The position numbers were made by a program, and so were the translations under genes. Positions 4,525-62,554 of a stretch of 64,000 nucleotides of DNA are shown piece after piece; positions within the stretch are counted from its first letter, which is position 1; every line of letters begins with the position of its first letter. The DNA is from Candidatus Desulfobacillus denitrificans (lineage in GTDB: Bacteria > Pseudomonadota > Gammaproteobacteria > Burkholderiales > Rhodocyclaceae), in the NCBI GenBank assembly GCA_017347485.1, contig AP021857.1, positions 1,717,390 through 1,781,389 of the forward strand, written 5' to 3'. The notes below the pieces were generated by a model. It had not been told where the DNA came from and did no database searches. It saw only the letters and a list, made by a program, of their open reading frames with translations.

Positions 4525-6469
4525 CAGCCCGTTGCTTGCCCGCTCGCAGGAACTGTGGCTGCTGGCCTGTTCCGTCCTCACCCTGGTGCCCGGCGTCGAG
4601 CACATTCCGCACTGGCTCACCGCTGCTGCCGGCCTAGCACTCGCCTGGCGGGCGGCAATCTGGTGGCGTCGCGCCTCCTTGCCGCCGCGCTGGCTGCTGA
4701 CTTTCCTCGTTTTCAGCGGCTCGCTGGGCGTCTTCCTCACCTACCGGCAGTTCTTCGGCAAGGATCCGGGCGTCGCCCTGCTGATTCTCTTCCTCGTCCT
4801 CAAACTGCTCGAGATGCGTCGGCTGCGCGACGGGCTGGCCGTCATCTTTCTGTGCTATTTCCTGCTCCTGACCCATTTTCTGGATGCGCAGGGCCTCGAT
4901 GTCGCCGGCTTTACCCTGGCAGCCCTGCTTGGCATCACCGCGGCCCTGTCCGGCCTTGCCCATGCCGGACGTCCCGTCCTGGCGCATCTTCGTCTGTCGG
5001 CGCTCATGTTGGCGCAGGCAACCCCTTTCATGCTTCTCCTGTTTCTGCTGTTCCCGCGCGTCCAAGGGCCTCTTTGGGGCATGCCCGCGGACGCTTACAG
5101 CGGGATGAGCGGCCTTTCGGACACCATGTCGCCGGGTTCCATCAGCCAACTGAGCCTGTCCGGCGAGATCGCCTTCCGGGCGCACTTCGAAGGGGATATC
5201 CCGCCGAAACATCAGTTGTACTGGCGCGGCCCGGTGTTGCGCCTGTTCGATGGCCGCGCCTGGCGCGCCGGCGCGCAAACCGAAAAAGTCAGTCTCCCCG
5301 ATACGGCGGCGGGAACGCGCGTCCGCTACGCGGTGACCCTCGAACCGCACAACAAGCCCTGGCTTTTCGCCTTGGAGGTGCCCTCGTCGGCGCCGCCGGC
5401 TGCCATCGTTTCGCGCGAATTCCAGGTCCTGTCGAAACTGCCCGTACGCAATCGCTTGCGCTATGAAATGCAGGCCCTGCCGGATTTCGTGCCGGGTGCC
5501 GAGGAAAGCCAGGCTTCCCTGCACGGCTATCTCGGACTGCCTGCCAACAATCCGCGCACCCGCGCACTCGTCGGGCAATGGAGGCGCGAAGCGGCGACGG
5601 ACGAAGCCGTCGTCCGTCGCATGCTCGATTTTTTTCGCGCTGAAAACTTTTTCTACACGCTGACCCCTCCGCTGCTCGGAGACAACAGCATCGACCAGTT
5701 CCTCTTCGAAACACGGCGCGGCTTCTGCGAGCACTATGCCTCGGCCTTCGTCTTCGCCATGCGGGCGGCGGAAATCCCGGCGCGCGTGGTCACCGGCTAT
5801 CAGGGCGGCGAGCGCAATCCGGTTGACGGCTATTTGATCGTGCGCCAGTCCGATGCGCACGCCTGGGCGGAGGTCTGGCTGGAGGGCCGGGGCTGGCTGC
5901 GGGTCGATCCGACGGCTGCGGTCGCCCCCAGCCGGATCGAAGCCGGACTGGCTGCCGCCGTCCCAGCCGGGGAACCCCTGCCGTTCATCGTCCGGGCCGA
6001 TCTGTCCTGGCTGCGGCAAATCCGCTTTCGCTGGGAAGCCGTCACCAACACCTGGAACCAGTGGGTGCTGGGGTACACCCCGGAACGGCAACGCGAATTT
6101 CTCTCTCGACTGGGCATGCGCGAGCCGGATTGGCGGAAGATGACAGCGGTCATGGCCGCCTTGTGCGGGTTGTTGCTGCTGGGGTTGACCGCCTGGATGC
6201 TGCACAACCGGACACGTCTCGATCCGATTGTCCGCGCCTGGAACCGGCTGAGCCGCAAGCTCTCGCGCATCGGTTTGGCGCGCAAGGCATGGGAAGGACC
6301 GGCCGACTACGCGCGGCGCGTCACGCTTGCCCGGCCCGAACTGGCGCAACCCCTGTTGGCCATCGCCACGCTTTATATCGATCTGCGTTATGGCAGACTG
6401 GGCGGCAAGCAGCCCATTCAGAAATTGCGCAGACTGATCGCGGACCTGAACATTACCGCCAAACGATGA
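4505..6469 (+). CDS. tgpA: TgpA-type membrane transglutaminase (DUF3488-transglutaminase-DUF4129)
   Basis: Inner-membrane protein with a periplasmic transglutaminase-like domain; Pseudomonas TgpA is the described relative and is linked to envelope integrity. 654 residues from ATG 4505, which overlaps the DUF58 gene. About six membrane segments occupy residues 15-190 (DUF3488). The papain-like core has catalytic Cys408 (RRGFCEHYASAF), His452 (SDAHAWAEVW) and Asp468 (LRVDPTAAV). A further membrane helix near 555-580 precedes a cytoplasmic DUF4129-like tail. One copy of the dispersed AAAGTCAGTC word lies inside it (5285-5294). ATGA overlap with mltB places both in one operon. Confidence 0.9.
   Translation: MATQRPDSPLLARSQELWLLACSVLTLVPGVEHIPHWLTAAAGLALAWRAAIWWRRASLPPRWLLTFLVFSGSLGVFLTYRQFFGKDPGVALLILFLVLKLLEMRRLRDGLAVIFLCYFLLLTHFLDAQGLDVAGFTLAALLGITAALSGLAHAGRPVLAHLRLSALMLAQATPFMLLLFLLFPRVQGPLWGMPADAYSGMSGLSDTMSPGSISQLSLSGEIAFRAHFEGDIPPKHQLYWRGPVLRLFDGRAWRAGAQTEKVSLPDTAAGTRVRYAVTLEPHNKPWLFALEVPSSAPPAAIVSREFQVLSKLPVRNRLRYEMQALPDFVPGAEESQASLHGYLGLPANNPRTRALVGQWRREAATDEAVVRRMLDFFRAENFFYTLTPPLLGDNSIDQFLFETRRGFCEHYASAFVFAMRAAEIPARVVTGYQGGERNPVDGYLIVRQSDAHAWAEVWLEGRGWLRVDPTAAVAPSRIEAGLAAAVPAGEPLPFIVRADLSWLRQIRFRWEAVTNTWNQWVLGYTPERQREFLSRLGMREPDWRKMTAVMAALCGLLLLGLTAWMLHNRTRLDPIVRAWNRLSRKLSRIGLARKAWEGPADYARRVTLARPELAQPLLAIATLYIDLRYGRLGGKQPIQKLRRLIADLNITAKR
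5285..5294 (+). repeat. AAAGTCAGTC word, copy 1 (inside tgpA)
   Basis: Exact copy of the dispersed 10-mer, read Lys-Val-Ser in the tgpA frame. Confidence 0.75.
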
Positions 6470-7473
6470 ACCGGAAGCTGGCCATTCCCTTTTTATGCAT
6501 TCTCGCCTGGGCGGCGCCCGTCATCGCCGGCGCGACCGGCTTTGCCCAACGCGAGGAAGTCCGGGCATTCATCGAGGAGATGCACGACAGGCATGGTTTC
6601 GACCGGGTTCGGCTGGTCCGCTTTTTCAGTCAGGTGCAGCCCCAGCCCAAGGCCATCAGGGCCATCGCCCCGCCCAAGGAGCCCACGGCACGCTCCTGGC
6701 AGCGCTACCGGACGCGTTTCGTCGAGCCCGTTCGTATCGAAGGGGGCCTGCGTTTCTGGGAAGAAAACCGCCAGACGCTGGAAGCCGTGCAACGCGCCTA
6801 TGGGGTGCCCGTCGAGATCATCGTCGCCATCATCGGCATCGAAACGATCTACGGACGGCATATAGGCAAATTTCCAACTCTGGCAACCTTGGCCACACTG
6901 GCCTTCGACTATCCGCCGCGGTCGGACCTGTTCCGCGGCGAACTGGAAGCACTGCTGTTGCTGGCGCGCGAGTCCCGACGCAGCCCGCTCGATTACACGG
7001 GATCCTATGCCGGCGCGCTCGGCATGCCGCAGTTCCTGCCCAGCAGCATTCGTTACTGGGCGGTTGATTTCGATGGAGACGGCCGGATAGACCTTGACAC
7101 GAGCAAGGCCGATGCCATCGCCAGCGTTGCGAATTTTCTCGCCAGCCACGGTTGGGAAACCGGTGGTCCCGTCGCCGCTCCCGCCAGCGTGATCGGCCAG
7201 CGTTACGGCGAGCTCCTCGATGCCGGCATCCTGCCGAGGCTGCTGCCGGCAGAAATGGCAGCCTATGGCGTCAGCTCAGCGCCCGATTCTCCGCAATTGC
7301 CCTGCGCGCTCATCGACCTGCCGACCCCCGAAGAAGCAACAGAATACTGGCTTGGCTACCGCAATTTTTACGTCATCACGCGCTACAACCGGTCAAGCTT
7401 TTATGCCATGACGGTTTATGCGCTGTCAGGTGCCTTGAAGGCGAAAAGGGAAGCCCAACTGGCCGCCAGATAG
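6466..7473 (+). CDS. mltB: Membrane-bound lytic murein transglycosylase B
   Basis: Periplasmic lytic transglycosylase (GH103) cleaving peptidoglycan glycan strands to 1,6-anhydromuropeptides. 335 residues with an N-terminal signal peptide (about residues 1-23) but no lipobox cysteine at the cleavage point, so it is probably secreted or soluble rather than lipid-anchored. Catalytic Glu126 sits in GIETIYG, and SYAGALGMPQFLPSSIRYWA and an EF-hand-like DFDGDGRIDLD loop follow, all typical of MltB. It starts in an ATGA overlap with tgpA, and its stop lies only three bases from the rpoS stop on the other strand, leaving no room for a dedicated terminator. Confidence 0.92.
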   Translation: MNRKLAIPFLCILAWAAPVIAGATGFAQREEVRAFIEEMHDRHGFDRVRLVRFFSQVQPQPKAIRAIAPPKEPTARSWQRYRTRFVEPVRIEGGLRFWEENRQTLEAVQRAYGVPVEIIVAIIGIETIYGRHIGKFPTLATLATLAFDYPPRSDLFRGELEALLLLARESRRSPLDYTGSYAGALGMPQFLPSSIRYWAVDFDGDGRIDLDTSKADAIASVANFLASHGWETGGPVAAPASVIGQRYGELLDAGILPRLLPAEMAAYGVSSAPDSPQLPCALIDLPTPEEATEYWLGYRNFYVITRYNRSSFYAMTVYALSGALKAKREAQLAAR

Positions 7474-7476
7474 ACG

Positions 7477-8388
7477 CTATAGCAGCACATCCTTCGAGAC
7501 GCCGCGCCGCTTGAGAATGCGACGTAACTGGGAGAGCGCCTCGATCTGAATCTGCCTGACCCGCTCCCGTGTCAGGGACAGCCGTTCAGCCAGTTCTTCG
7601 AGCGTCGCCACTTCGCAGCCGTTAAGGCCATAGCGGAACTCGATCACCTGGCGCTGCTTGTCGTTGAGCAAGCCGATCCACTCGTTCACCAGATGTTCCA
7701 CTTCGGCCGCGTGAATTTGCATCTCCGGCGTCTCCGCGGAATCGTCCGCCAGCGACTCGCCGATGGACAGGCTCGGGTCGATCTCCAGCGGCGCGTCGAG
7801 CGAGGCGACATGCTCGTTGAGAGCCAGTACCTGGCGCACCACCTCGACCGGCTTGTCGAGCAATTGGGCGATCTCCTCCACCCCAGTTTCGCGGGCACTG
7901 GCCGACTCCAGGCGCCGCATGGCGCGCAGCACGGAGTTGAGTTCCTTGACGACATGTACCGGCAGACGGATGGTGCGGGACTGGTTCATGATGGCCCGCT
8001 CGATGTTTTGACGGATCCACCATGTGGCATAAGTCGAGAAACGGAAGCCCCGCTCCGGATCGAATTTATCCAGCGCATGGATCAAGCCGAGATTGCCTTC
8101 CTCGACCAGATCCAGCAGCGGCATGCCGCGGTTGAGGTAGTGCTTGGCGATATTCACCACCAGGCGCAGATTGTGTTCGATCATCTTCTGCCGCGCCGCC
8201 TCCTCTCCCCGGCGGGCGCGACGGGAATAGTCCAGTTCCTGCTCGGGCGTCAGCAGGGGGTTGGCACCGATTTCGTTGAGATAGATCTGGGTAACATCGT
8301 TGAGGTATTCCAGTTCGGCCGCCGGCGCTGGCTCTGGCGCCACCGGCTCCGGATGTTCTCCCTCCTCCTGCAAGGTCTCGTCTCGCAT
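7477..8388 (-). CDS. rpoS: RNA polymerase sigma factor RpoS
   Basis: Stationary-phase/general stress sigma factor, 303 residues. Region 1.2 is [20 protein letters not shown]; region 2.4 ([20 protein letters not shown]) recognises the -10 element. Regions 3 and 4 are intact, ending in the 4.2 helix [20 protein letters not shown]. The acidic Pro/Glu-rich N-terminus (residues 8-25) is longer than in enterics. It lies three bases after nlpD, as in Proteobacteria generally, where the main rpoS promoter usually sits inside nlpD. Confidence 0.97.
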
Positions 8389-8391
8389 GGC

Positions 8392-9282
8392 CTATCGAGG
8401 CGGCAGCAGCTTGATGGGATCCAGCGGTTTGCCCTGATGACGGATTTCGAAATGGAGCTTTGCCTGGTCGGTATCGGAGTTCCCGAGTTCCGCGATCTTC
8501 TGTCCCTTGCCCACCTGCTGGCCTTCCTTCGCCAGCAGCTTGCTGTTGTGGGCATAAACGCTGGAAATACTGTTGGCATGCTGGACGATGAGCAGATTGC
8601 CGTAGCCGCGGATGCCGCTGCCGGCGTAAGTCACCTTGCCGGCTTCGGCCGCCTGCACCGGATCGCCGATGCGGCCCTCGATATCGATGCCCTTGTTCCC
8701 GCCCTCCACATAGCCTGCAATGATCTTGCCGCTGCTCGGCCAAGCCCATGACAATTCCCCACCGTTACCCGGCTCGGGCGGTTTTGGCTCGGTCTTGGCA
8801 GGGGCTGTCGGCAAAAAGGCCTCGCCCTGCTTTTGCGCCGCCGCCATCGCCTGTTCCGTATAAGGCTGCTTGCCGCCTTTCGGCTCTCGCTTGACGGTAT
8901 CCGTGCTGGATGGAGCGCTGGGCGTTAGCGGGCGCGACTCGACCTGGGACGGCCCTGTTATCGGCCTGACGACCGCAGTCCCCTCGGGCGGAGCCACCCG
9001 AAGCTGCTGTCCGACGCGGATCATGTTTGGATTGTCGATACTGTTCCAGGCGGCCACATCGCGATAGGATTGTCCATGCTCCAGTGCGATGCTGTAGAGC
9101 GTTTCGCCCCTTTTCACGGTATGGAATTCGCCTGGTTTGGCTTGGGTGGCCGCTGGTGGCGTCGGCTTGCCGGGAGCACCACCCCGCTCGACCACCGGTG
9201 CCGGAGACTTCGAAGCACAAGCAGCCAGCAAGCCGGCCACAATCACAGCCAGCAGGGGTGAAAAACGGACAGCATTCATCAT
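8392..9282 (-). CDS. nlpD: Murein hydrolase activator NlpD (LysM-M23 lipoprotein)
   Basis: Outer-membrane lipoprotein that activates amidases for daughter-cell separation. Signal peptide with lipobox LLAAC, LysM domain at about residues 53-96 (HTVKRGETLYSIALEHGQ), a Pro/Ala/Thr-rich linker, then a C-terminal M23/LytM domain. The M23 domain is degenerate, as expected for NlpD: the first zinc-ligand motif reads NKGIDIEG instead of HxGxD, while a residual His remains in LHFEIRHQG. It should therefore activate other hydrolases rather than cut murein itself. It lies between pcm (2-base gap) and rpoS. Confidence 0.94.
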   Translation of the reverse strand: MMNAVRFSPLLAVIVAGLLAACASKSPAPVVERGGAPGKPTPPAATQAKPGEFHTVKRGETLYSIALEHGQSYRDVAAWNSIDNPNMIRVGQQLRVAPPEGTAVVRPITGPSQVESRPLTPSAPSSTDTVKREPKGGKQPYTEQAMAAAQKQGEAFLPTAPAKTEPKPPEPGNGGELSWAWPSSGKIIAGYVEGGNKGIDIEGRIGDPVQAAEAGKVTYAGSGIRGYGNLLIVQHANSISSVYAHNSKLLAKEGQQVGKGQKIAELGNSDTDQAKLHFEIRHQGKPLDPIKLLPPR

Positions 9283-9284
9283 GC

Positions 9285-10681: not shown

Positions 10682-10718
10682 GGTATGCCGCGCGGCAATG
10701 GCTGCCTCAGGGAAAGAA

Positions 10719-10796
<78 letters not shown>

Positions 10797-13893: not shown

Positions 13894-13895
13894 GG

Positions 13896-20297: not shown

Positions 20298-21062
20298 ATG
20301 GACATTCAATCCTTGCGCGCCTTCGAGGACAATTATATCTGGCTGTTGCGGGAAGGTCGCCGCGTCGTCGTGGTGGATCCCGGCGACGAGGCGCCGGTGC
20401 TGCGCTATCTGGCCGAGGAGGATGCCGACCTCGCCGCCATCCTCCTCACGCATCACCACGGCGACCACACCGGCGGCGTTGCCGGCCTGCTGGCCAGGCA
20501 TCCGGTTCCGGTCTTCGGTCCGGCCGGGGAAAGCATCGCGGGGGTCAGCGTGCCGCTGCGCGAAGGCGACAAGATTGCACTGCCGGATTTCCATGCCGAC
20601 CTGAAAGTCATCGACGTGCCCGGACATACCCGCGGCCACATTGCCTATTATGGCGAAGGCGCGCTGTTCTGCGGCGACACGCTGTTCGCCTGCGGCTGCG
20701 GCCGGTTGTTCGAGGGGACTGCCGCGCAAATGTGGTCATCGCTGGGAAAGCTCGCCGCCCTGCCGCCCGAGACGGGCGTGTACTGTGCCCATGAGTACAC
20801 CGAGTCGAACATCCGTTTCGCCCTCGCCGTTGAACCCGGCAATGCCGCGCTGCTGACCCGCGCCGGACGCGTGGCGGAATTGCGGCGGAACCTGCAACAG
20901 ACGGTGCCCTTTGCCCTGGCCGAGGAGCTGGCGACGAATCCCTTCCTGCGCAGCGCACAACCCGAGGTGGCACGCGCCGCCGAGCGGCATTGCGGAACCG
21001 CCCTGCCCGGCGCCACCGAGGTATTCGCCGCGCTGCGCGAATGGCGGAACGGATTCCGCTGA
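20298..21062 (+). CDS. gloB: Hydroxyacylglutathione hydrolase (glyoxalase II)
   Basis: Metallo-beta-lactamase-fold thioesterase that releases D-lactate and glutathione in methylglyoxal detoxification. 254 residues. Binuclear metal motif [10 protein letters not shown] at residues 51-60, further ligands in [13 protein letters not shown] and [17 protein letters not shown], and the C-terminal glutathione-contact region NPFLR. Convergent with the diguanylate cyclase: the two stops are three bases apart, and an AAAGTCAGTC word spans the junction. Confidence 0.94.
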
Positions 21063-21071
21063 AAGTCAGTC
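21062..21071 (+). repeat. AAAGTCAGTC word, copy 2 (between convergent gloB and GGDEF genes)
   Basis: Exact copy spanning the tail-to-tail junction; it contributes to both stop codons. Confidence 0.75.
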
Positions 21072-22019
21072 TCTCAAGAGCGCCGGTGCAGCCGCCTGGA
21101 TGCGATTCCGTCCCAGTCGCTTGGCCTCGTACAGCGCCCAGTCGGCCGCACTCAGCAGCCTGGGCATGGCCTCGGGCTGCTGCGGCGTCAGGCTCGCCGC
21201 GCCGACGCTCACCGTGACGACGCCGAAGGATGACACCTCGTGCGGGATGCCCAGCGCCTGCACCACCGCGCGCATGGCTTCCGCCACCAGCAAGGCCCCT
21301 TCCGGTCCGGTGCCCGGCAGGATCGCGGCAAATTCCTCGCCACCGTAGCGCGCCACCACGTCGGCTGGACGGCGCAACCGCTCCCGCAAGGCCTCCGCCA
21401 CCGCACGCAAACAGGCATCGCCCGCCTGGTGCCCGCAGCTGTCGTTGTATTGCTTGAAGAAATCCACGTCGATCATCAGGAGGGACAGCACCTCGCGCTC
21501 CCGCAGGCAACGCCGCCATTCCCGCGAGAGGGCTTCGTCGAACTGCCTCCGGTTGGCGATGCCGGTAAGTCCGTCGACGGCGGAAAGCCGCGTCAGTTCG
21601 CGGTTGGCGCTGTCCAGCTTGTGCGTCAGCACGCGCAGCGCTTCGTGCATCTGGATGATGCGCTGCATGGCCCGTACCTTGGCGCCCAGCACCACTTCGC
21701 TCACCGGCTTGAACAAGTAGTCGTCGCCGCCTGCCTCGATGCCGCGTTCGAGATCCTCGTCCTTGGTCAGGGCGGTAAGGAAGATGATCGGCGTCCACTC
21801 GCCGGGTTTTTCCATGGCCCGGATGCGCCGCGCCACTTCGAAGCCGTCGAGGCCGGGCAGGATGATGTCGAGCAGGATGAGCTGTGGGCGCTCGCGCTCG
21901 AAGCTGGCGATCCCCGCCAGCCCGTCGCGGGCCTGCACCGGCTGAATTCCCAGCCGCTCCAGCAAATGGCAGATCACCGCCTGGCTGGTCGCGGTATCTT
22001 CGATGACGAGAGCTTTCAT
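21066..22019 (-). CDS. Response regulator with GGDEF diguanylate cyclase domain
   Basis: Cytoplasmic c-di-GMP synthase controlled by phosphorylation, 317 residues. Receiver domain 1-120 with phospho-acceptor Asp51 (LLDIILPGLDG) and the conserved Lys in LFKPVSE. A helical linker near 120-145 leads to the GGDEF domain at 150-310, with active-site GGEEF at 226-230. The inhibitory I-site RxxD is present as RPAD (217-220), exactly five residues before GGEEF, so product inhibition is expected. No cognate histidine kinase is adjacent. Divergent from mltD. Confidence 0.93.
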   Translation of the reverse strand: MKALVIEDTATSQAVICHLLERLGIQPVQARDGLAGIASFERERPQLILLDIILPGLDGFEVARRIRAMEKPGEWTPIIFLTALTKDEDLERGIEAGGDDYLFKPVSEVVLGAKVRAMQRIIQMHEALRVLTHKLDSANRELTRLSAVDGLTGIANRRQFDEALSREWRRCLREREVLSLLMIDVDFFKQYNDSCGHQAGDACLRAVAEALRERLRRPADVVARYGGEEFAAILPGTGPEGALLVAEAMRAVVQALGIPHEVSSFGVVTVSVGAASLTPQQPEAMPRLLSAADWALYEAKRLGRNRIQAAAPALLRD

Positions 22020-23573: not shown

Positions 23574-25583
23574 TTATTCGTAAAGGAAGCAGCGCACGCG
23601 GTGCGTATCGCCTAGCCGCGTCTCGGCCGGATAGGCGGCGGCGCATTGCGGCATGGCCCGCGGGCAGCGTGGATGGAAATGGCAGCCGGCCGGCGGCTGC
23701 GACGGGGAGGGCATGTCCCCCTTCAGGACGATCGCTTCGCGACGGCCATCGGCATCCAGACGCGGCACGGCAGAGAGCAGGGCCTCGGTGTAGGGATGCT
23801 TCGGCTCGCGCAGGATTTCTTCTACCGCACCCCGCTCGACGATGCGGCCGAGGTACATCACCGCCACCTCGTGCGCCAGGTATTCCACCACCGCGATGTT
23901 GTGGGTGATAAACAAATAGGCCAGGCCGAGCGCGCCCTGCAGTTCCTTCAGCAGGTTGAGGATCTGCGCCTGCACCGAGACGTCGAGGGCGCTGGTCGGC
24001 TCGTCGCACACCAGCAGGCGCGGCGCCACCGCCAGCGCCCGGGCGATGGCGATGCGCTGGCGCTGACCGCCGGAAAACTCGTGTGGATAGCGTCCAAGCA
24101 TGGTGGCGGAAAGACCGACGCGCTCGATCAATTCTGCCGTGCGGCGCGCTTTGGCTGGCGGCGTCCCCCCTTGGCCGAGGGCGGACAGGCCCTCCTCGAT
24201 GATGTCGCCGATCCGCATGCGCGGGTCGAGCGAGGCATAGGGATCCTGGAAAACGATCTGCATCTCGCCACGCAGCCGGCGCAGCCGCGCGGCAGGCAGC
24301 GCCGTCAGTTCCTCGCCGCGGAAGCGCACGCTGCCGCCGGTCGGCTTCAGGAGTTGCAGGATGGCCTTGCCCACGGTGGTCTTGCCGCAGCCGGATTCGC
24401 CGACCAGCGCCAGGGTGCGCCCGGAAGTCAGTCCCAGCGAGACGCCGTCGACCGCCCTCACCTGGCCCACGGCGCGGCGGAACACGCCCTGGCGAATCGG
24501 GAAATGCACCTTCAGGTCATCCACCTCGAGCAGCGGTGCGGCTTCAACCGCTTGCAATGAAGACGCACTCTCCTCCGTTGGTGCCTGCGCGGCCGGCCCG
24601 CCACCGGCGAGCTGCGCATCGACCGCATCGTAGAGATGGCAGCGCACGGCATACCCCGTTTCCGCCCCGTGCCAGGCCGGGATTTCCTCCCGGCAGCGCG
24701 ACCAGACGCGCGGGCAGCGCGGCGCGAAACGGCAACCGGAAAACATCGTCGTCAGCGACGGCACGCTGCCCGCTATGGTTTCCAGCACGCTTTCGCGCCG
24801 TTCCGGCCGCGGCAGCGCGGCGAACAGCTTGATCGAATAGGGATGCTTCGGCGCGGCGAAAAAGTCGATCCGAGAAGCGACCTCCACCAGTTCGCCCGCG
24901 TACATCACGCCGACGCGGCTGGCCAGTTGGCGGGCGATGCCGAGGTCGTGGGTGATCAGCAGCATGCCCATGCCGCGCTCGCGCTGGAGCGCGCCGAGCA
25001 GCTCCAGCACCTGCGCCTGAATGGTGACATCCAGCGCCGTGGTCGGCTCGTCGGCGATCAGCAGCGCCGGGTCGCCGGCCAGTGCCATGGCGATCATGAC
25101 GCGCTGCCTCATGCCGCCGGAGAACTGGAAGGGATACTCTTCGAGACGCCGCCTCGCATCGGGAATGCCGACCGCGTCGAGCAGTTCGCGTGCGCGTCGC
25201 GCCGCCGCCGCGCCGCGCAGTGCGCCATGCCGCGCCAGCACCTCGCCGATCTGCCGGCCGACGCTGAGCACCGGATTCAGGCTGGTGGCCGGTTCCTGAA
25301 AGATCATCGCCATCTCGCCGCCGCGCACCTCGCGCATTTGCGCTTCGGTCAGCGCCAGCAGATCGCGGCCGTTCAGCAGCACGCGGCCACCGCGCACGCG
25401 CCCGACGTCGGGAAGCAGGCGCATCAGGGAAAGCGCCGTCATCGACTTGCCGCAGCCGGATTCGCCGATCAAGGCAAAAGTTCCGCCCGGCTCGATCTCG
25501 AAGGAAACGTCGTCGACGGCCCGCACCGGGCCGGCCGCGCTGTCCAGGAACATTTGCAGCGATTCGACCCTGAGCAGGCTCAT
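23574..25583 (-). CDS. yejF: Fused double ATPase of peptide-type ABC importer (YejF/OppDF-like)
   Basis: 669 residues from ATG 25583, carrying two nucleotide-binding domains of the Opp/Dpp family. First half: Walker A GESGCGKSMT, signature FSGGMRQRV, Walker B LLIADEPTTALD. Second half: GESGCGKTTVG, FSGGQRQRI, LLVCDEPTSALD. Each half ends with the Opp/Dpp Cys motif (GCRFAPRCPRVWSRC and GCHFHPRCPRAMPQC), which in some Dpp ATPases binds an Fe-S cluster. A proline/alanine linker joins the halves. It forms an ATGA overlap with the upstream permease, so the operon is SBP-permease-permease-ATPase. The frame remains open far upstream of the true start. Confidence 0.93.
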   Translation of the reverse strand: MSLLRVESLQMFLDSAAGPVRAVDDVSFEIEPGGTFALIGESGCGKSMTALSLMRLLPDVGRVRGGRVLLNGRDLLALTEAQMREVRGGEMAMIFQEPATSLNPVLSVGRQIGEVLARHGALRGAAAARRARELLDAVGIPDARRRLEEYPFQFSGGMRQRVMIAMALAGDPALLIADEPTTALDVTIQAQVLELLGALQRERGMGMLLITHDLGIARQLASRVGVMYAGELVEVASRIDFFAAPKHPYSIKLFAALPRPERRESVLETIAGSVPSLTTMFSGCRFAPRCPRVWSRCREEIPAWHGAETGYAVRCHLYDAVDAQLAGGGPAAQAPTEESASSLQAVEAAPLLEVDDLKVHFPIRQGVFRRAVGQVRAVDGVSLGLTSGRTLALVGESGCGKTTVGKAILQLLKPTGGSVRFRGEELTALPAARLRRLRGEMQIVFQDPYASLDPRMRIGDIIEEGLSALGQGGTPPAKARRTAELIERVGLSATMLGRYPHEFSGGQRQRIAIARALAVAPRLLVCDEPTSALDVSVQAQILNLLKELQGALGLAYLFITHNIAVVEYLAHEVAVMYLGRIVERGAVEEILREPKHPYTEALLSAVPRLDADGRREAIVLKGDMPSPSQPPAGCHFHPRCPRAMPQCAAAYPAETRLGDTHRVRCFLYE
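24425..24433 (+). repeat. AAGTCAGTC word, copy 3 (9 of 10 bases; inside ABC ATPase gene)
   Basis: Matches the last nine bases of the dispersed 10-mer; the first A is replaced by G. The host gene lies on the opposite strand. Confidence 0.6.
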
Positions 25584-27010
25584 GCCATTTTTCCCGGCAG
25601 GGAGCGACGGCTGCCGGCCAGGCGCGGATCGAAGGCATCGCGCACCGCGTCGGCGAACAGGTTGGCCGCCAGCACCAGCACGAACATGAAGACGAAGGCG
25701 GCCAGCAGCGACCACCACACCACCGGCTCGCGCGCCAGCTCGAGGCGCGCGGTGTTGATCATGGTGCCGAAGCTGATGGTGCTCGGATCGACGCCGATGC
25801 CGATGTAGGACAGCACCGCCTCGGCCAGCACCAGGCCGGAGAAATCCATCACCACCGAGATCAATACGATGTGCATGACGTTGGGCAGGATGTGCCGCCC
25901 CAGGATGCGTGCCGCCGAAGCGCCGAAGGCCTGCGCCGCCTGCACGTACTCCAGCTCGCGCAGCTTGAGCGTCTCGGCGCGCAGCAGCCGGCACAGCCCG
26001 GTCCAACTGGTCACGCCGAGAATCAGGCACAGCGCCAGCAGGCGCGCATCGGCGCGCTGGGCGGCGGTGGCAAACCAGTCCGGATGCATGTCTATCGCCA
26101 CCTGCACCATCAGCACCGCGGCGGCGATCAGCAGCACGCCGGGAATCGAGTTGAGCGTCGTGTAAAGATACTGGATGAGATCGTCCACCCAGCCGCCGAC
26201 ATAGCCGGCGACGAGGCCCAGTGCCACGGCGAAGGGCAGCATGACGAGGGTGGTGAGGGTGCCGATGACCAGGCCGGTGCGGATGCTCTTCAGGGTCAGG
26301 TAGAGCACGTCCTGGCCGACCTTGTCGGTACCGAGGACGTGGTAGCCGCCGGCGAGCGACAACGCCGGCCCGGCCAGCAGCAGGAGCATGCCCAGCGCAG
26401 CCAGCGCGGCATGCCAGGCAAAGCGCGTCTCGCCGCGCCGGATGCGGCGCCAGGCGGCCTGCCAGCCGGTTCCCCAGCGCCGCGCGGCGAACAGTACGGC
26501 AAGCGCGACAAAAGTCAGTCCCGCCAGCACGGCGAGCGCGGCGCCCCGCAGCGTCCGCAGCGTCACGTCGCGGCCCCACTCCGCCTCGACATCCGCAAGA
26601 TGCGCGCCGCCGTGCTTCAGGCGCGGGAACACCCGTGCCTGGCTGCCATCGGGCAGTTCCACCGTCTCCCTGGCGTACAGATGCGCGGCCAGCGGCGCCG
26701 AATAGGTTTTCTCGGTGCCGTCCCGGAGCGGCTGCAGCAGCACATCCAGCAGGCTGCGCACCTCGCCGCTGTACCCGCCCGGCTGGCCGGATGCCGCCTC
26801 CAGGCGCGGCCGGTAATGCAGGGAGTCGATCAGCCCGACGACGACGAAGGCCACCAGCAGGGTCAGCGACGCCATGCCGGCGCGGCTTTCGCCGACGCGG
26901 TGCCAGGAGGCCAGCAGGTATTCGCGCCGGCTGATGTAGATCCCGGAGGCGATGCCGCATGCAACGAGCAGGAAAACCAGCGCATCGGTCCACAACAGCA
27001 CGGGCGTCAT
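25580..27010 (-). CDS. yejE: ABC transporter permease, OppC/YejE-like, with enlarged periplasmic region
   Basis: 476 residues, clearly longer than E. coli YejE (about 340). After two N-terminal membrane helices (about 5-25 and 47-62) there is an extra soluble stretch near 65-150 (HYRPRLEAASGQPGGYSGEV onward). Two more helices and then a normal BPD_transp_1 permease core follow (about 265-460). The EAA loop is LRLLRAETLKLRELEYVQAAQAFGASAARILGRHILPN in pattern, with the conserved Gly-x9-Leu-Pro-Asn. Overlaps both neighbouring genes by four bases. Confidence 0.88.
   Translation of the reverse strand: MTPVLLWTDALVFLLVACGIASGIYISRREYLLASWHRVGESRAGMASLTLLVAFVVVGLIDSLHYRPRLEAASGQPGGYSGEVRSLLDVLLQPLRDGTEKTYSAPLAAHLYARETVELPDGSQARVFPRLKHGGAHLADVEAEWGRDVTLRTLRGAALAVLAGLTFVALAVLFAARRWGTGWQAAWRRIRRGETRFAWHAALAALGMLLLLAGPALSLAGGYHVLGTDKVGQDVLYLTLKSIRTGLVIGTLTTLVMLPFAVALGLVAGYVGGWVDDLIQYLYTTLNSIPGVLLIAAAVLMVQVAIDMHPDWFATAAQRADARLLALCLILGVTSWTGLCRLLRAETLKLRELEYVQAAQAFGASAARILGRHILPNVMHIVLISVVMDFSGLVLAEAVLSYIGIGVDPSTISFGTMINTARLELAREPVVWWSLLAAFVFMFVLVLAANLFADAVRDAFDPRLAGSRRSLPGKMA
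26512..26521 (+). repeat. AAAGTCAGTC word, copy 4 (inside permease gene)
   Basis: Exact copy, antisense to the yejE-like gene. Confidence 0.75.
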
Positions 27011-39832: not shown

Positions 39833-40642
39833 ATGTCCGTCGAGCATTACGAAAACTTTCCCGTCGCCTCCCTGCTGCTACCCGCGCGACTGCGCGAGCC
39901 GGTCAAGGCCATCTACGCCTTCGCCCGCAGCGCCGACGACATCGCCGACGAGGGTACCCAGACCGACCGGGAGCGCCTCGACGGCCTCGATCGCTACCGC
40001 AGCGAACTGGACGCCATCGCAGCCGGCCGCCCGACGCAGGACCCGATCTTCCGGCGCCTGGGGCCGGCCATCGCCGCGCACGGACTGCCGCTCCAGCTTT
40101 TCCGCGACCTCCTCGACGCCTTCAGCCAGGACGTGGTGAAGAAACGCTACGCCGATTACGGGGAACTGATGGACTACTGCCGCCGTTCCGCCGATCCGGT
40201 CGGCCGCCTGCTGCTGCACTTGTACGGCATCCGCGACGAAAAAAGTCAGTCCCTGTCGGACGGCGTCTGCAGTAGCCTGCAGCTCATCAACCACTGGCAG
40301 GACATTGCGATTGACTGGCAAAAGGGTCGTGTCTACCTGCCGCAGGACGAGTTGACGCGCTTCGGCATCCGGGAGGATCAGATCGCCGCGGGCCGCTGGG
40401 ACGCCGCCTGGGCGGCCATGATGGATTTCCAGATCGACCGCGCCCGCGGCATGATGCTCGCCGGCGGCCCGCTGGTGCATGCCCTGCGCGGGCGCATCGG
40501 CTTCGAGCTGCGGCTCATCGTCGCCAGCGGCCTGCGCATGCTGGACAAATTGCAGCGCGTGCGCGGCGACGTTTTCCGCCGGCGGCCGGTCATCACGAGG
40601 CGGGATTGGCCGGGCATCCTGCTCCACGCCGCATTCGCATGA
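39833..40642 (+). CDS. hpnC: Squalene synthase HpnC
   Basis: Trans-isoprenyl-diphosphate synthase fold enzyme of the HpnCDE route to squalene; HpnC converts presqualene diphosphate to hydroxysqualene. 269 residues from ATG 39833 (SVEHYENFPVASLLLPARLR); a GTG at 39809 is an in-frame alternative. Aspartate-rich motif 1 is RSADDIADE; motif 2 is the atypical NHWQDIAIDW. It overlaps hpnD by ATGA and holds one AAAGTCAGTC word. Head of an hpnCDE operon, divergent from tRNA-Leu. Confidence 0.9.
   Translation: MSVEHYENFPVASLLLPARLREPVKAIYAFARSADDIADEGTQTDRERLDGLDRYRSELDAIAAGRPTQDPIFRRLGPAIAAHGLPLQLFRDLLDAFSQDVVKKRYADYGELMDYCRRSADPVGRLLLHLYGIRDEKSQSLSDGVCSSLQLINHWQDIAIDWQKGRVYLPQDELTRFGIREDQIAAGRWDAAWAAMMDFQIDRARGMMLAGGPLVHALRGRIGFELRLIVASGLRMLDKLQRVRGDVFRRRPVITRRDWPGILLHAAFA
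40242..40251 (+). repeat. AAAGTCAGTC word, copy 5 (inside hpnC)
   Basis: Exact copy, on the coding strand but in a different frame from copy 1 (Lys-Ser-Gln-Ser). Confidence 0.75.
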
Positions 40643-45134: not shown

Positions 45135-46190
45135 ATGCAAAAGGCAACCGCAACCGTAGCACAAGTCGCCGACTTCGACGAGATCATCGATGTGCGCTCG
45201 CCCGCCGAGTTCGCCGAAGACCATGTGCCGGGCGCGGTCAATTGTCCGGTGCTCTCCGACACGGAGCGCGCCCGCGTCGGCACGCTCTACAAGCAGGAAT
45301 CCCCCTTCGCCGCCAAGAAGCTCGGGGCGGCGCTCGTCGCCCGCCACATCGCCGAGCATATCGAAACGCGCTTCCTCGACAAGCCGCGCGAATGGAAACC
45401 GCTCATCTACTGCTGGCGCGGCGGCAAAAGGAGCGGCGCCATGACCCACGTGCTGCGCCAGATCGGCTGGCACGCCTGCGCGCTGGAAGGCGGCTACAAG
45501 TCCTGGCGCCGCCACGTCGTCGCCGAACTGGCCGGGCTGCCGCGGCGCTTTTCCTTCCGCGTCGTCAGCGGCGCCACCGGCAGCGGCAAGAGCCGCCTGC
45601 TCGAAGCCCTCGCCGCGCAGGGCGCGCAAGTGCTCGACCTGGAGGCGCTGGCCGCGCACAAGGGTTCGGTGCTGGGCGGCCTGCCCAACGCATCCCAGCC
45701 TTCGCAGAAACTGTTCGAGAGCCGCCTGCTCGCCGTGCTGCGGGGACTGACTTTTGCCGAGCCGGTGTACGTCGAGGCGGAAAGCCGCAAGATCGGCCGG
45801 CTGCAACTGCCCGACGCCCTGCTGGAGACCATGCGCGCCGGCCCCTGCCTGCGCATCGAAGCGACCCTGCCGGCGCGCGTCGCCTTCCTCATCGGCGACT
45901 ACGATTACTTCCTCGCCGACCCGGCCTCGCTCAAGGAAAAGCTCGCCTGCCTGCGCGAGCTGCAAAGCGGCGAGACGCTCGCGCGCTGGAACGCGCTGAT
46001 CGACGCGCGCGACTGGCCGGCGCTGGTGGCCAAACTGCTGGAACTGCATTACGACCCGCTCTACCGGCGCTCGCAAGGCAGGAACTACGCCCATTTCGCC
46101 GAGGCGCCGCGCTTCGCCACCGACGATCTCTCCCCCGCCGGGCTGGAGAGGCTGGCCCGGCAAATCCTGAATACCGCAAGCGGTCCCTAG
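45135..46190 (+). CDS. mnmH: tRNA 2-selenouridine synthase
   Basis: SelU/YbbB converts 2-thiouridine at the tRNA wobble position to 2-selenouridine, using selenophosphate from SelD. 351 residues. Rhodanese domain with catalytic Cys93 (IYCWRGGKRSG); P-loop domain GATGSGKS at 146-153, both required in the family. Start at ATG 45135; an upstream ATG at 45093 would begin inside the inverted repeat. One AAAGTCAGTC word lies within. It ends in CTAG, shared with the stop of the convergent ATPase. Confidence 0.95.
   Translation: MQKATATVAQVADFDEIIDVRSPAEFAEDHVPGAVNCPVLSDTERARVGTLYKQESPFAAKKLGAALVARHIAEHIETRFLDKPREWKPLIYCWRGGKRSGAMTHVLRQIGWHACALEGGYKSWRRHVVAELAGLPRRFSFRVVSGATGSGKSRLLEALAAQGAQVLDLEALAAHKGSVLGGLPNASQPSQKLFESRLLAVLRGLTFAEPVYVEAESRKIGRLQLPDALLETMRAGPCLRIEATLPARVAFLIGDYDYFLADPASLKEKLACLRELQSGETLARWNALIDARDWPALVAKLLELHYDPLYRRSQGRNYAHFAEAPRFATDDLSPAGLERLARQILNTASGP
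45745..45754 (-). repeat. AAAGTCAGTC word, copy 6 (inside selU/mnmH)
   Basis: Exact copy on the minus strand (GACTGACTTT on plus). Confidence 0.75.
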
Positions 46191-56285: not shown

Positions 56286-56296
56286 AGCAGGCCGAC

Positions 56297-57217: not shown

Positions 57218-57246
57218 TTGCAAATTGTTGCGTTTCAATCTATCAT
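57216..57246 (+). promoter_or_regulatory. Candidate promoter and operator of hcrCAB
   Basis: TTGCAA (57218-57223) and TATCAT (57241-57246) are 17 bases apart, 36 bases before the hcrC ATG. An imperfect inverted repeat, GATTG-c-AAA to TTT-CAATC (57216-57240), covers the -35 and spacer and could be a repressor site. AAAGGG (57269-57274) is the SD. Confidence 0.5.
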
Positions 57247-57281
57247 CGCAAACAGGACAATGGCGATGAAAGGGCGGACAC

Positions 57282-60115: not shown

Positions 60116-61089
60116 TGCAAGACCTCGCCATCCTCAAGCCCGAATCGGTCGCCCAGGCGATCGCCCTGCACGGCGCCGGCGAAGGCGCGCGCTACCTCGC
60201 CGGCGGCACCGATCTGGTGCCCAACCTTCGCCGCAACATCCAGAAGGCGAAGACGCTGATCGACGTCTCCGGCCTCGCCGAACTGCACGGCATCGGCGTG
60301 GAAAGTCAGTCGCTGCGCATCGGCGCCGGCGTGACGCTGGAGGACCTCTGCGCCTCCGAGGCGGTGCGCCGCCAGGCGCCGCTGCTGGCGCAGGCCGCGT
60401 CGCAGGTGGCCGGCCCGACGCATCGCGCCGCCGGCACCGTCGGCGGCAACCTGATGCAGGACACGCGCTGCTATTTCTACAACCAGAGCGATTTCTGGCG
60501 CACCGCCAACGAGTACTGCATGAAATGCGAGGGCGACACCTGCCGCGTCGCGCCGAAATCGGACCGCTGCTACGCCTGCTACAGCGGCGACCTGGCGCCG
60601 GCCCTGCTGGTGCTCGGCGCCGAGGTCGACATTTCCGGCCCCACGGGCAACCGCCGCGAGCCGCTCGCCGCCCTCTTCGCCGACGACGGCATGCGCCACC
60701 TCAAGCTCGCGCCCGGCGACCTGCTGGTGTCCGTGGACGTGCCCTCGCAGGCCGGCTGGTCGGCGGGCTACGAGAAGGTGCGCATGCGCGGCGCCATCGA
60801 CTTCCCGCTCGCCGGCATCGCCGTGGCGCTCAAGCGCGACGGCGGCCGCATCGCCGCGCTGCGCATCGCCTGCACCGGCGTCAATTCCTATCCCGGCCTG
60901 GTGCCGGGTCTCGATGCGCTGTGCGGCAAGGCGCCCGACGACGCCTTCTTCGCCGCACTGGACAAGGCCGTGCGCAAGGAGATCCAGCCGATGGAATCCA
61001 CCCTCACCGCCGCCGGCTATCGGCGCCGCGTCGCCGGCGGGCTGGCGCGCCGGCTGGTCGAGCGGCTTTTCGAAGCAGCTGGCGCCTGA
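60115..61089 (+). CDS. hcrB: 4-hydroxybenzoyl-CoA reductase, beta (FAD, [4Fe-4S]) subunit
   Basis: FAD subunit, 324 residues, the same length I recall for Thauera HcrB. FAD-binding LAGGTDLVPNLRR and TVGGNLMQDTRCYFYN. It has the insertion that distinguishes HCR from other family members: six cysteines at 119, 135, 138, 143, 152, 155. Positions 119, 135, 143 and 152 reproduce the spacing of the extra [4Fe-4S] ligands of the Thauera enzyme. This cluster is tied to its reversed, reductive electron flow, so the assignment as true HCR is strong. Contains one AAAGTCAGTC word. Confidence 0.94.
   Translation: MQDLAILKPESVAQAIALHGAGEGARYLAGGTDLVPNLRRNIQKAKTLIDVSGLAELHGIGVESQSLRIGAGVTLEDLCASEAVRRQAPLLAQAASQVAGPTHRAAGTVGGNLMQDTRCYFYNQSDFWRTANEYCMKCEGDTCRVAPKSDRCYACYSGDLAPALLVLGAEVDISGPTGNRREPLAALFADDGMRHLKLAPGDLLVSVDVPSQAGWSAGYEKVRMRGAIDFPLAGIAVALKRDGGRIAALRIACTGVNSYPGLVPGLDALCGKAPDDAFFAALDKAVRKEIQPMESTLTAAGYRRRVAGGLARRLVERLFEAAGA
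60302..60311 (+). repeat. AAAGTCAGTC word, copy 7 (inside hcrB)
   Basis: Exact copy on the coding strand (Glu-Ser-Gln-Ser context). Confidence 0.75.
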
Positions 61090-61134
61090 TCCGGATCATT
61101 CCGGGGACGCGCCTGCTGGACTAGAATCGCCGCC

Positions 61135-61338
61135 ATGAGCGCCTGGTCCTGTCCCCACGACCTGAACGGCATCTGCCAGAAAGTGGCCGGCGCCGCCTGC
61201 GATCCGGGCATGCGCGGCTGCGTGCTGCACGGCAAGGTGCGTTTCGCCAGCGCGGAGAAACAGGCCGAGCGCAAGCCGGTCAAGGCCGAGCCGGCCGCCA
61301 AGCCGGCGTCCTCCCCGAAGCGCCGCCTGCCCTTTTGA
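61135..61338 (+). CDS. Small four-cysteine protein of unknown function
   Basis: 67 residues. The N-terminal half is compact and Cys-rich (Cys6, Cys14, Cys22, Cys29; C-x7-C-x7-C-x6-C) with CDPGMRGCVLHGKVRF; the C-terminal half is a basic Lys/Ala/Pro tail. I recognise the pattern from other Betaproteobacteria but know no function; metal or Fe-S binding is plausible. There is no SD. TAGAAT at 61122-61127 puts a likely transcription start at or next to the ATG, suggesting a leaderless mRNA. It ends one base from the convergent MFS gene. Confidence 0.7.
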   Translation: MSAWSCPHDLNGICQKVAGAACDPGMRGCVLHGKVRFASAEKQAERKPVKAEPAAKPASSPKRRLPF

Positions 61339-61339
61339 A

Positions 61340-62554
61340 TCAGCGGGCGGGCAGCCGCCCGACCCCCAGCGCCGTCAGGATCGCCGCGCCCTGCAGGAGC
61401 GCCACGCCGGCGAGCGCGGCGCCGAAATGGCCCGCATCCATGAGCGGGCCGAACGCCAGCGGCGAGATCGCCAGGCCGATGTCCAGCCCGGAATAGACGA
61501 AGCCATACACGCGACCGTAGGCCTGCTGGCCGAAGCGCGAAGTGGCCGCACGGCGCACCAGCAGATCCCGCGAAGGTCCGGCGATCCCGGTGCAGAAGCC
61601 CATCACGCCCATCGCCAGCGAAACGCTCCAGCCGGGCAGCGCGCCACTGGCGATCAGCACCGCGATCAGCGCGGCGGCGCCGAGCGCGCCGGCGATCAGC
61701 CGGTCATGCGGCGCGTTGCGGCTGGCCAGCACGCCGCCGGCCGCGATGCCCGCCGCGCCGCCGAGCAGGAAGGCCGTCAGCGTCGCCGCCGCCGCCGCCA
61801 CCGGGAGGCCGTACAGGTTCTGCATCATGGGCGTGGCGAAGTTCTGCAGGGCGCCGAAGGCCGCCGTGATCAGCAGAAAGAAGGCGAAGCACATCCACAC
61901 CGCGCCGACACCGAGAAAGCCGAAGGTCGACGCCGTCCTGGCCGGACTGACTTTCGCGCCGGCCTCCGGTAGAGCCGTCGCCTCGCGGCGCAGCCAGACG
62001 ACCAGCCAGGCCAGGACACCGACGACGGCCGCGCCGATTGCCGCCGTGCGCCAGCCCGCCGCGGCGGCGATGCCGGTGAGAAACACCGGTGCGATGGCCC
62101 AGCCGAGGTTGCCCGACAGGCCGTGCGCCGAGAAGGCATGGCCGAGCCGCGCCTGGCTCACCTTGCGGTTGAGCACCGTGAAATCGGCCGGATGGAAGAC
62201 GCTGTTGCCGAGCCCCGTCAGCGCGCCGACCGCCAGCAGCATGGCATAGCTGCGCGACACGCTCAGCAGCAGCGCGGCGAGGACGAAGCAGGCGATGCCC
62301 GCCAGCAGCACGCGGCGCGGGCCGATGCGGTCCACGACGAAGCCGGACAGCGCCTGGCCGATGCCGGAGACCACGAAGAAGGCGGTCATCAGCGCGCCGG
62401 CCTCGGTGAAGTTGAGGCCGAATTCCGGCATCAGCCAGGGAAACAGCGGCGGCAGCAGCAGGTGGAAAAAATGCGAGGTGCCGTGGACGAAGCCGATCAG
62501 CCCGATGACGCGCACGTCGCTGCGCAAATCGGCCGGGGCGGATACGCCGTCCAT
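61340..62554 (-). CDS. MFS transporter
   Basis: 404-residue major facilitator with about 12 membrane helices. MFS signature between helices 2 and 3: DRIGPRRVLL. The stretch NSVFHPADFTVLNRKVSQAR and HAFSAHGLSGNLGWAIAPV resembles the fosmidomycin-resistance (Fsr) branch of sugar-phosphate or drug exporters. It starts 4 bases after the pyruvate-kinase-like gene and is probably co-transcribed with it. Substrate unknown. Contains one AAAGTCAGTC word. Confidence 0.85.
   Translation of the reverse strand: MDGVSAPADLRSDVRVIGLIGFVHGTSHFFHLLLPPLFPWLMPEFGLNFTEAGALMTAFFVVSGIGQALSGFVVDRIGPRRVLLAGIACFVLAALLLSVSRSYAMLLAVGALTGLGNSVFHPADFTVLNRKVSQARLGHAFSAHGLSGNLGWAIAPVFLTGIAAAAGWRTAAIGAAVVGVLAWLVVWLRREATALPEAGAKVSPARTASTFGFLGVGAVWMCFAFFLLITAAFGALQNFATPMMQNLYGLPVAAAAATLTAFLLGGAAGIAAGGVLASRNAPHDRLIAGALGAAALIAVLIASGALPGWSVSLAMGVMGFCTGIAGPSRDLLVRRAATSRFGQQAYGRVYGFVYSGLDIGLAISPLAFGPLMDAGHFGAALAGVALLQGAAILTALGVGRLPAR
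61945..61954 (-). repeat. AAAGTCAGTC word, copy 8 (inside MFS transporter gene)
   Basis: Exact copy on the minus strand, which is the coding strand of the transporter. Confidence 0.75.

What the first reader, a model, noticed from the sequence alone, without database searches (positions are those of the whole stretch)
5285..61954. Dispersed 10-mer AAAGTCAGTC, seven exact copies plus one 9-mer in 64 kb
Exact copies start at 5285, 21062, 26512, 40242 and 60302 on plus and cover 45745-45754 and 61945-61954 on minus; AAGTCAGTC is at 24425. With about 64% G+C I would expect well under one copy of such a word on both strands. The copies fall in unrelated genes, on both coding and template strands, in different reading frames, and once exactly between two convergent stop codons. 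Protein conservation therefore cannot explain them. Spacing is roughly one per 8 kb and six of eight point the same way. Known analogues are DNA uptake sequences, Chi-type recombination sites, FtsK-orienting sequences and methylation targets. I know of no described uptake sequence of this form in Rhodocyclales.
Basis: seen in the sequence. Interest (0 to 1): 0.72.

Follow-up and report, generated by a model that had tools for sequence, protein, structure and literature searches.

The report
New DNA-uptake sequence in Rhodocyclales
A 24-letter two-part DNA word occurs hundreds of times around the chromosome of this Rhodocyclales bacterium, and at the sites compared with a close relative nearly all its fixed letters stay the same while the surrounding DNA changes; it is likely a self-recognition tag for taking up DNA, which would be the first outside the two bacterial families known to use such tags.

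Summary
AAAGTCAGTC occurs 416 times in the window's own 3.15-Mb genome, against 4 for the reversed control, and ranks first by z-score among 10-mers in an 844-kb sample (106 seen, 0.18 expected). It is half of the signal: 103 of 105 copies carry ACGGCG (at most one mismatch) exactly 8 bases downstream, giving AAAGTCAGTC-N8-ACGGCG. Copies are balanced between leading and lagging strands (65/65), scattered without ori/ter bias, about 8 times rarer in lower-G+C DNA, and mostly next to stop codons when not inside genes. Core and tail are 97-98% identical in a relative whose flanks are 73-76% identical. In a motif-free species of the same genus, none of 9 aligned sites is a 24-bp empty site, so copies seem to arise or decay by small changes, not insertion. 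A sister genus uses a dialect ending in ACGCCG. This fits an uptake sequence (DUS/USS-like) and argues against Chi, FtsK-orienting sequences or a mobile repeat. Uptake itself is inferred: ComEC, type IV pilins and a ComP-family minor pilin are present, but no ComEA was found and no receptor identified. A 2025 paper states that only Neisseriaceae and Pasteurellaceae are known to do this.

The parts
5285..5308 (+). motif copy, 16 of 16 fixed positions; in a TgpA/transglutaminase-like gene, frame 0 (KVS..TA)
   Evidence: kept in G010, one core change in G073
21062..21085 (+). motif copy, 14 of 16, spanning two convergent stop codons (hydroxyacylglutathione hydrolase-like and GGDEF genes)
   Evidence: degraded in G010, full motif in G073
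   Evidence: full AAAGTCAGTC in G010 and G073, no motif in G121 or G184
26511..26534 (+). motif copy, 16 of 16; antisense in a binding-protein-dependent permease gene (AVLAGLTF)
   Evidence: kept in G010 and G073, one core change in G184, replaced at the same length in G121
40242..40265 (+). motif copy, 16 of 16; in a squalene/phytoene synthase gene, frame 1
   Evidence: kept in G010 and G073, no motif in G121
45731..45754 (-). motif copy, 16 of 16; antisense in a rhodanese-domain gene (AVLRGLTF)
   Evidence: kept in G010 and G073, replaced at the same length in G121
60302..60325 (+). motif copy, 15 of 16 (tail TCGGCG); in a molybdopterin dehydrogenase FAD-binding gene, frame 1
   Evidence: kept in G010; fell outside the RCGSCG pattern used
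61931..61954 (-). motif copy, 16 of 16; in an MFS transporter gene, frame 0 (KVS..TA)
   Evidence: kept in G010, absent in G073

Best explanation
The dispersed 24-bp word AAAGTCAGTC-N8-ACGGCG is likely a DNA uptake sequence, predicted to be bound by a type-IV-pilus receptor so that DNA of the bacterium's own kind would be imported in preference to foreign DNA. Shown here: hundreds of copies, fixed two-part anatomy with an 8-base spacer, no replication-strand or ori/ter bias, scarcity in lower-G+C DNA, concentration by stop codons when not inside genes, conservation of core and tail above flanks at orthologous sites, no 24-bp empty site among those aligned, presence in two genera with a different tail base, and only 0-12 copies of the core in 371 other sampled genomes of the family. 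Inferred: that biased uptake followed by recombination keeps restoring the word (molecular drive), that both halves are read together by one receptor, and that the receptor is a minor pilin. Not shown: uptake itself, natural competence of this organism, and the identity of the receptor.
For: 416 copies genome-wide against 4 for the reversed control; first 10-mer by z-score in an 844-kb sample, 106 against 0.18 expected. Tail ACGGCG at fixed distance with at most one mismatch in 103 of 105 exact cores, and in 38 of 52 one-mismatch cores. Leading 65, lagging 65; near-ori 58 in 400 kb, near-ter 72 in 444 kb. 4 of 130 sites in 166 kb below 64% G+C against 126 in 678 kb above (P = 3e-8). Of 49 sites not wholly inside genes, 41 lie within -24 to +40 nt of a stop codon end, against 27.9% of 5,000 random not-wholly-coding 24-mers. 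Own against G010, 11 sites: core 108/110, tail 64/66, spacer 66/88, flanks 241/330 and 250/330 (P = 5e-15 for core plus tail against flanks, columns treated as independent). Core in excess in 15 of 16 sampled genomes of genus g1 and 4 of 6 of g66; 371 genomes outside g1, g66 and g23 hold 0-12 copies. Dialect: ACGCCG in 134 of 137 motifs of G149 but 11 of 384 of G000. ComEC is present, as are type IV pilins and a ComP_DUS-family minor pilin.
Against: No ComEA-type protein was found in G000 with TIGR00426 or PF12836; in both searches the only hits in g1 and g66 lie in 452-810-aa frames. The ComP-family minor pilin occurs with and without the motif: 25 of 26 genomes searched, the miss being motif-rich G658 (85% complete). 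The copy in G000 matches those of G010 and G073 only over residues 19-79 and 19-97 of 179, odd for a receptor of a shared word. An MSHA-type minor pilin is missing from motif-rich, 99%-complete G614 and from less complete, motif-bearing G670 and G704, so it is not required. No ComEC was found in motif-rich G149 (85% complete). Close inverted pairs are few in the 844-kb sample, one 22 and one 69 bases apart, whereas DUS form such pairs in high numbers (PMC3630211, passage). G121 keeps ComEC and pilins without the motif. No uptake or transformation data were seen.
Confidence: 0.8

Rival explanations
1. A recognition site for a chromosomal DNA-binding protein (nucleoid organisation, segregation or recombination initiation such as Chi, FtsK-orienting sequences, Noc/SlmA/MatP-type sites).
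For: Long fixed recognition sequence conserved above flanks and scattered all round the chromosome; counts per 20 kb (mean 3.07, variance 2.17 over 42 stretches) are no more clumped than random.
Against: No leading-strand bias (65/65) and no ori/ter bias (58 in 400 kb against 72 in 444 kb). The motif is not palindromic, and Chi and FtsK-orienting words are about 8 bases (recalled). Scarcity in lower-G+C DNA is not expected of a whole-chromosome organiser.
Confidence: 0.1
2. Short mobile repeats (REP- or palindromic-element-like) inserted into genes and intergenic spaces.
For: Many near-identical short copies, some overlapping gene ends. At the 21062 site G073 carries 39 extra bases just upstream of its motif.
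Against: Aligned to motif-free G121, 0 of 9 sites shows a 24-base empty site; 5 of 9 align without gaps in the 24 columns and 4 have gaps of 1-3 bases (only sites whose flanks align were counted, and extra bases in the relative were ignored). The 8-base spacer varies between copies. Frames are strongly filtered: of 81 coding sites 47 fall in one antisense frame and 0 in the frame that contains TGA.
Confidence: 0.03
3. A transcription-terminator family: the motif is selected as a 3'-end hairpin.
For: 41 of 49 not-wholly-coding sites lie by a stop codon; an internal stem of 4 or 5 pairs is possible in 28 of 49 such sites against 21 of 81 coding sites (P = 0.0007); two perfect inverted pairs, in L177 and L091.
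Against: 81 of 130 sites lie inside genes, and stop-proximal copies point both ways about equally, 21 against 20. Better read as a secondary use, as reported for DUS (PMC3630211, passage).
Confidence: 0.04
4. A restriction-modification or DNA-methylation target.
For: Two-part word with a fixed spacer, as in type I sites (recalled).
Against: Sixteen specified bases are too many for such a site (recalled), and modification gives no obvious reason for a 100-fold excess or for conservation above flanks. Methylation itself was not testable.
Confidence: 0.03

Closest known systems
DNA uptake sequences (DUS) of Neisseriaceae, receptor ComP
   Same: Hundreds of copies or more, core constant with dialects, intergenic copies tied to terminators, a UGA stop in one frame of the word, reported scarce in the accessory genome (passages of PMC3630211 and PMC5031613); same class Betaproteobacteria (recalled).
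   Different: Unrelated sequence; two blocks over 24 bp instead of one word of about 12; few inverted pairs here; the ComP-family pilin does not track the motif.
Uptake signal sequences (USS) of Pasteurellaceae, predicted receptor PpdA/ComN
   Same: Genomes with hundreds or more copies, and recognition that extends beyond the core (extended USS; passages of PMC12616744).
   Different: The downstream part here is a near-invariant ACGGCG, not a less conserved AT-rich tract; the sequence differs from AAGTGCGGT; other class of Proteobacteria; no PpdA orthologue was searched for.
Chi and FtsK-orienting sequences
   Same: Over-represented dispersed words read by a protein.
   Different: Those are short and strand-biased (recalled); here 65/65.

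Membership tests
DNA uptake sequence (DUS/USS) | hundreds of copies far above chance, both strands | tested here: met
   197 + 219 against 1 + 3 control; 106 against 0.18
DNA uptake sequence (DUS/USS) | spread over the chromosome without replication-strand or ori/ter bias | tested here: met
   65/65 and 58/72, with ori near 0 and ter set at 1.6 Mb from the GC skew of the stretches
DNA uptake sequence (DUS/USS) | constant core with lineage dialects | tested here: met
   core shared by g1 and g66; tail mostly ACGGCG against mostly ACGCCG
DNA uptake sequence (DUS/USS) | scarce in recently acquired or accessory DNA | tested here: inconclusive
   4 of 130 sites in the 20% of the sample below 64% G+C; G+C is only a proxy, accessory genes were not identified as such
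DNA uptake sequence (DUS/USS) | copies arise by point mutation and are kept, not inserted | tested here: met
   0 of 9 empty sites in G121; core and tail 172/176 in G010
DNA uptake sequence (DUS/USS) | intergenic copies often as inverted pairs at terminators | tested here: inconclusive
   stop-proximal 41 of 49, but only two inverted pairs less than 300 bases apart in the 844-kb sample
DNA uptake sequence (DUS/USS) | complete competence machinery (type IV pilus, ComEA, ComEC) | tested here: inconclusive
   ComEC and pilins found; ComEA not found; PilQ, PilT and DprA not searched
DNA uptake sequence (DUS/USS) | sequence-specific receptor | tested here: inconclusive
   candidate pilins do not track the motif
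DNA uptake sequence (DUS/USS) | motif promotes DNA uptake or transformation | not testable with these tools
   needs cells
Chi / FtsK-orienting sequence | bias to one strand relative to replication | tested here: not met
   65/65
Mobile short repeat | empty sites in relatives | tested here: not met
   0 of 9 aligned sites
Methylation / restriction site | modified base within the motif | not testable with these tools
   no read-level data

The most novel reading that the evidence does not exclude
A third, independently evolved self-DNA code in bacteria, in a group of largely uncultivated Rhodocyclales: a rigid two-part 24-bp address, read by a receptor that is neither a ComP orthologue conserved along with the motif nor part of an MSHA pilus, in cells that appear to lack ComEA, so the import machine itself may be of a new type.
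Probability: 0.45. Interest if true: 0.88.

Novelty: new variant of a known kind. Interest (0 to 1): 0.78.

Why it matters
Sequence-specific DNA uptake is stated to be known in only two families (PMC12616744, passage). A third case with unrelated sequence and a two-part design would give an independent replicate of how such codes arise, spread by molecular drive and split into dialects. It gives a direct way to look for the receptor (co-variation with the tail base across two genera) and predicts natural transformation, and a usable tag for genetics, in a group whose motif-bearing records seen here are mostly metagenome-assembled.

Tried and rejected
Receptor hunt by presence and absence: N_methyl pilins in 12 genomes, ComP_DUS in 26 and an MSHA-type minor pilin in 48. 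None separates motif-bearing from motif-free genomes; the MSHA pilin is found in 29 of 48, motif-free ones among them, and is missing from motif-rich G614. ComEC is found in 34 of 36 genomes, misses being G149 and G178 (85% and 80% complete), and does not discriminate. ComEA: TIGR00426 and PF12836 gave none in G000.

Another motif in motif-free G121: in 187 kb the strongest 9-mer is AAGGGGAGG, 11 against 0.37 expected, not followed up; there is one AAAGTCAGTC. Faint relics: in 244 kb, 3 near-matches (14 or more of 16) at spacer 8, against 0-1 at each of the other nine spacers tested.

Literature: no paper holds 'uptake sequence' with Rhodocyclales or Rhodocyclaceae, and one, on Neisseria meningitidis mutants, with Burkholderiales. 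The 10-mer itself is in 36 papers; the 20 listed have titles on other subjects and were not opened. In the listings (25 of 358; 30 of 48; 10 of 1,787; 3 of 3) no title reports an uptake sequence in another family; many are on unrelated subjects. I saw passages of PMC12616744 (abstract included), PMC3630211 (abstract included) and PMC5031613, and search listings of the rest. No bioRxiv preprints were held.

Gene calls are from my own simple codon-usage caller (807 genes, 89% coding), not from an annotation. The 130-site set uses the pattern and drops variants such as the window's 60302 copy. One search counts only sites whose 84-base neighbourhood aligns in stretches that I had fetched from the relatives (11, 7, 9 and 2 sites for G010, G073, G121 and G184).
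Full report
What was checked. The seven exact copies of AAAGTCAGTC and the 9-mer are in the window where stated, except that one start is 26511, not 26512. The window lies in a single-contig genome of 3,145,360 bases at 1717390-1781389. There the 10-mer occurs 197 times forward and 219 reverse; the same pattern read backwards occurs 1 and 3 times. In a sample of 39 evenly spaced 20-kb stretches plus the window (844 kb) it ranks first by z-score among 10-mers with at least 12 copies: 106 against 0.18 expected under an order-3 Markov model.

Organism. A sister genome, G073, has contigs of 1,049,257, 541,427 and 452,037 bases, the lengths of JACRPA010000002.1, -06.1 and -05.1, titled Rhodocyclales bacterium NC_groundwater_1975_Pr3_S-0.2um_66_25. 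A 200-base piece of locus L034 from G184, in the same genus, is in L090, a record titled Betaproteobacteria bacterium HGW-Betaproteobacteria-14.

Anatomy. The 10-mer is half of a two-part word. Of 105 exact copies with enough flank, 91 have ACGGCG exactly 8 bases downstream, 12 have it with one mismatch and 2 with two. Of 52 one-mismatch cores, 38 have the tail with at most one mismatch, 1 has two mismatches and 13 have five or six, so those 13 are probably chance. The 8-base spacer is variable but biased (position 12 C in 84 of 105, 15 C in 90, 16 a purine in 100). An A precedes the core in 67 of 105. With the spacer set to 8, 92 places in the sample match all 16 fixed positions; at each of the nine other spacers from 4 to 13, none does.

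Where copies lie. Allowing one core mismatch and RCGSCG, the sample has 130 sites: 81 inside predicted genes, 33 intergenic, 16 across a gene end. Inside genes 47 are antisense in one frame (typically AVxxxLTF in the protein), 24 sense in frame 0 (typically KVSxxxTA), 5 and 3 in the other sense frames, 2 in another antisense frame and none in the antisense frame that contains TGA. So protein tolerance filters the positions but no one peptide explains them. Of the 49 sites not wholly inside genes, 41 lie within -24 to +40 nt of the end of a stop codon, 21 antisense and 20 sense; random not-wholly-coding 24-mers do so in 27.9% of 5,000 draws. In those 49, a possible internal stem between the end of core plus spacer start and the tail (4 or 5 pairs, G-T allowed) is commoner than in coding sites: 28 of 49 against 21 of 81 (P = 0.0007). 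Coding-frame constraint may contribute to that difference. Two inverted pairs less than 300 bases apart were seen in the sample, 22 and 69 bases apart. The first (L177, 46 bp) and an overlapping pair in Sulfuritalea PRO1 (L091, 33 bp) are perfect hairpins in sequence.

Chromosome-wide pattern. GC skew by stretch, which is noisy, puts the origin near position 0 and the terminus near 1.6 Mb. With that, sites fall 65 on leading and 65 on lagging strands; 58 in 400 kb nearer ori and 72 in 444 kb nearer ter; counts per 20 kb have mean 3.07 and variance 2.17. In 2-kb pieces below 64% G+C (166 kb) there are 4 sites; above (678 kb) 126 (P = 3e-8). Nine of the 16 fixed letters are G or C, against 65.7% in the window, so composition alone would not predict this.

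Relatives. In 395 genomes of the family the core is in excess in 15 of 16 members of the genus (19 to 416 copies), with G121 at 4; in g66 in 4 of 6 (68, 107, 261, 68; the others 6 and 0); in g23 G023 has 17 and G084 2; the other 371 have 0 to 12, about the level of the reversed control. The full motif is in 17 of 199 family genomes, nine of them single copies, and among 399 genomes of the order only G000 (384) and G279 (8) have more than one. The tail differs by lineage: ACGCCG makes up 134 of 137, 47 of 72 and 21 of 24 motifs in g66 genomes G149, G114 and G066, but 11 of 384, 16 of 330, 10 of 338 and 5 of 107 in g1 genomes G000, G010, G073 and G184. In g66 the tail is less tightly coupled to the core: G149 has 261 cores and 137 with RCGSCG.

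Evolution at orthologous sites. About 56 kb of the window aligns to G010 and 49 kb to G073 at 80-89% identity; parts of 46-53 kb align less well, and 53-61 kb did not align in G073. Over the 11 own sites that could be aligned to G010, core identity is 108/110, tail 64/66, spacer 66/88, flanks 241/330 and 250/330. Over 7 sites in G073 it is 64/70, 38/42, 46/56, 147/210 and 164/210, with one site gone. Over 9 sites in motif-free G121, core identity is 56/90, tail 44/54, spacer 54/72, and the core is below its flanks (201/270 and 207/270). Over 2 sites in G184 the core is 13/20. The sites were picked in G000 and columns are not independent, so P values are only indicative. None of the G121 alignments shows a 24-bp empty site; ignores extra bases in the relative, and one search shows one such case of 39 bases beside the 21062 site in G073. 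G121 has a small excess of near-matches at spacer 8, a hint that it lost the motif.

Mechanism. This set of features - abundance, symmetry, dialects, conservation against drift, origin by small changes, avoidance of low-G+C DNA, use of gene ends - resembles that of uptake sequences in Neisseriaceae and Pasteurellaceae (passages of PMC3630211, PMC5031613 and PMC12616744). The likely cycle, inferred: a surface receptor binds DNA that carries the word, the DNA is pulled in and passed through ComEC, and recombination copies the word back into places where it had decayed. ComEC is present (TIGR00361, 353 bits) and its own gene carries two copies of the word. Type IV pilins are present, among them a ComP_DUS-family minor pilin at 2295208-2295747.

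What does not fit yet. No ComEA-type protein was found in G000 by two models. Some competent bacteria are known to do without it (recalled), but it leaves the pathway incomplete. The ComP-family pilin is present with or without the motif and was not found in motif-rich G658 (85% complete), and the copies in G000, G010 and G073 resemble each other only near the N terminus. An MSHA-type minor pilin is absent from motif-rich G614. No ComEC was found in motif-rich G149 (85% complete). The receptor is therefore open. Inverted pairs are few. Uptake was not observed.

Rivals. Chi and FtsK-orienting sequences are contradicted by the strand balance, macrodomain or nucleoid-occlusion sites by the even ori/ter distribution and lack of symmetry, mobile repeats by the lack of empty sites. 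A terminator role may be a secondary use of some intergenic copies. A methylation target was not testable. A phage source is unlikely: 24 viral stretches, 23 of them with one copy.

Novelty. [quoted passage not shown] My searches for an uptake sequence with Rhodocyclales, Rhodocyclaceae or Burkholderiales found no report of one in these groups, in a library that lacks most subscription journals and all preprints. I rate it a new variant of a known kind: unrelated sequence, two-block design, new lineage.

Noticed in passing
own-genome sample L160-L198 and window: The next over-represented family of 10-mers is CCCCTCTCCC / CCCTCTCCCG (36 and 24 copies against 0.4 and 0.9 expected), which looks like a G+C-rich palindromic repeat or terminator family.
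   Followed up: no
L184:11280-13616 (ComEC gene of G000): The ComEC gene itself carries two copies of the motif, at L184:11320 and 13501, the second giving AVLAGLTF near its N terminus.
   Followed up: partly
L166:18593-18685 and L135:2732-2824: A pair of motif copies 69 bases apart in opposite orientation is found in G000 (L166) and in Sulfuritalea PRO1 (L135) with very similar surrounding sequence.
   Followed up: no
G279 (another family of the order) and G672 (g19): G279 has 8 full motifs, 7 of them on the forward strand, and G672 has 12 cores, unlike their neighbours; possibly imported DNA or a weak further lineage.
   Followed up: no
G121 (same genus, 2.4 Mb, 98% complete): A member of the genus with ComEC and pilins but no excess of the motif and no MSHA-type minor pilin found; a natural comparison for loss of the system. 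Its strongest 9-mer in 187 kb is AAGGGGAGG, 11 against 0.37.
   Followed up: partly
G149 and other g66 genomes: In G149 only about half of the cores carry an RCGSCG tail (137 of 261; in G114 72 of 107, in G066 24 of 68), so a further tail variant or a relaxed tail may exist there.
   Followed up: no
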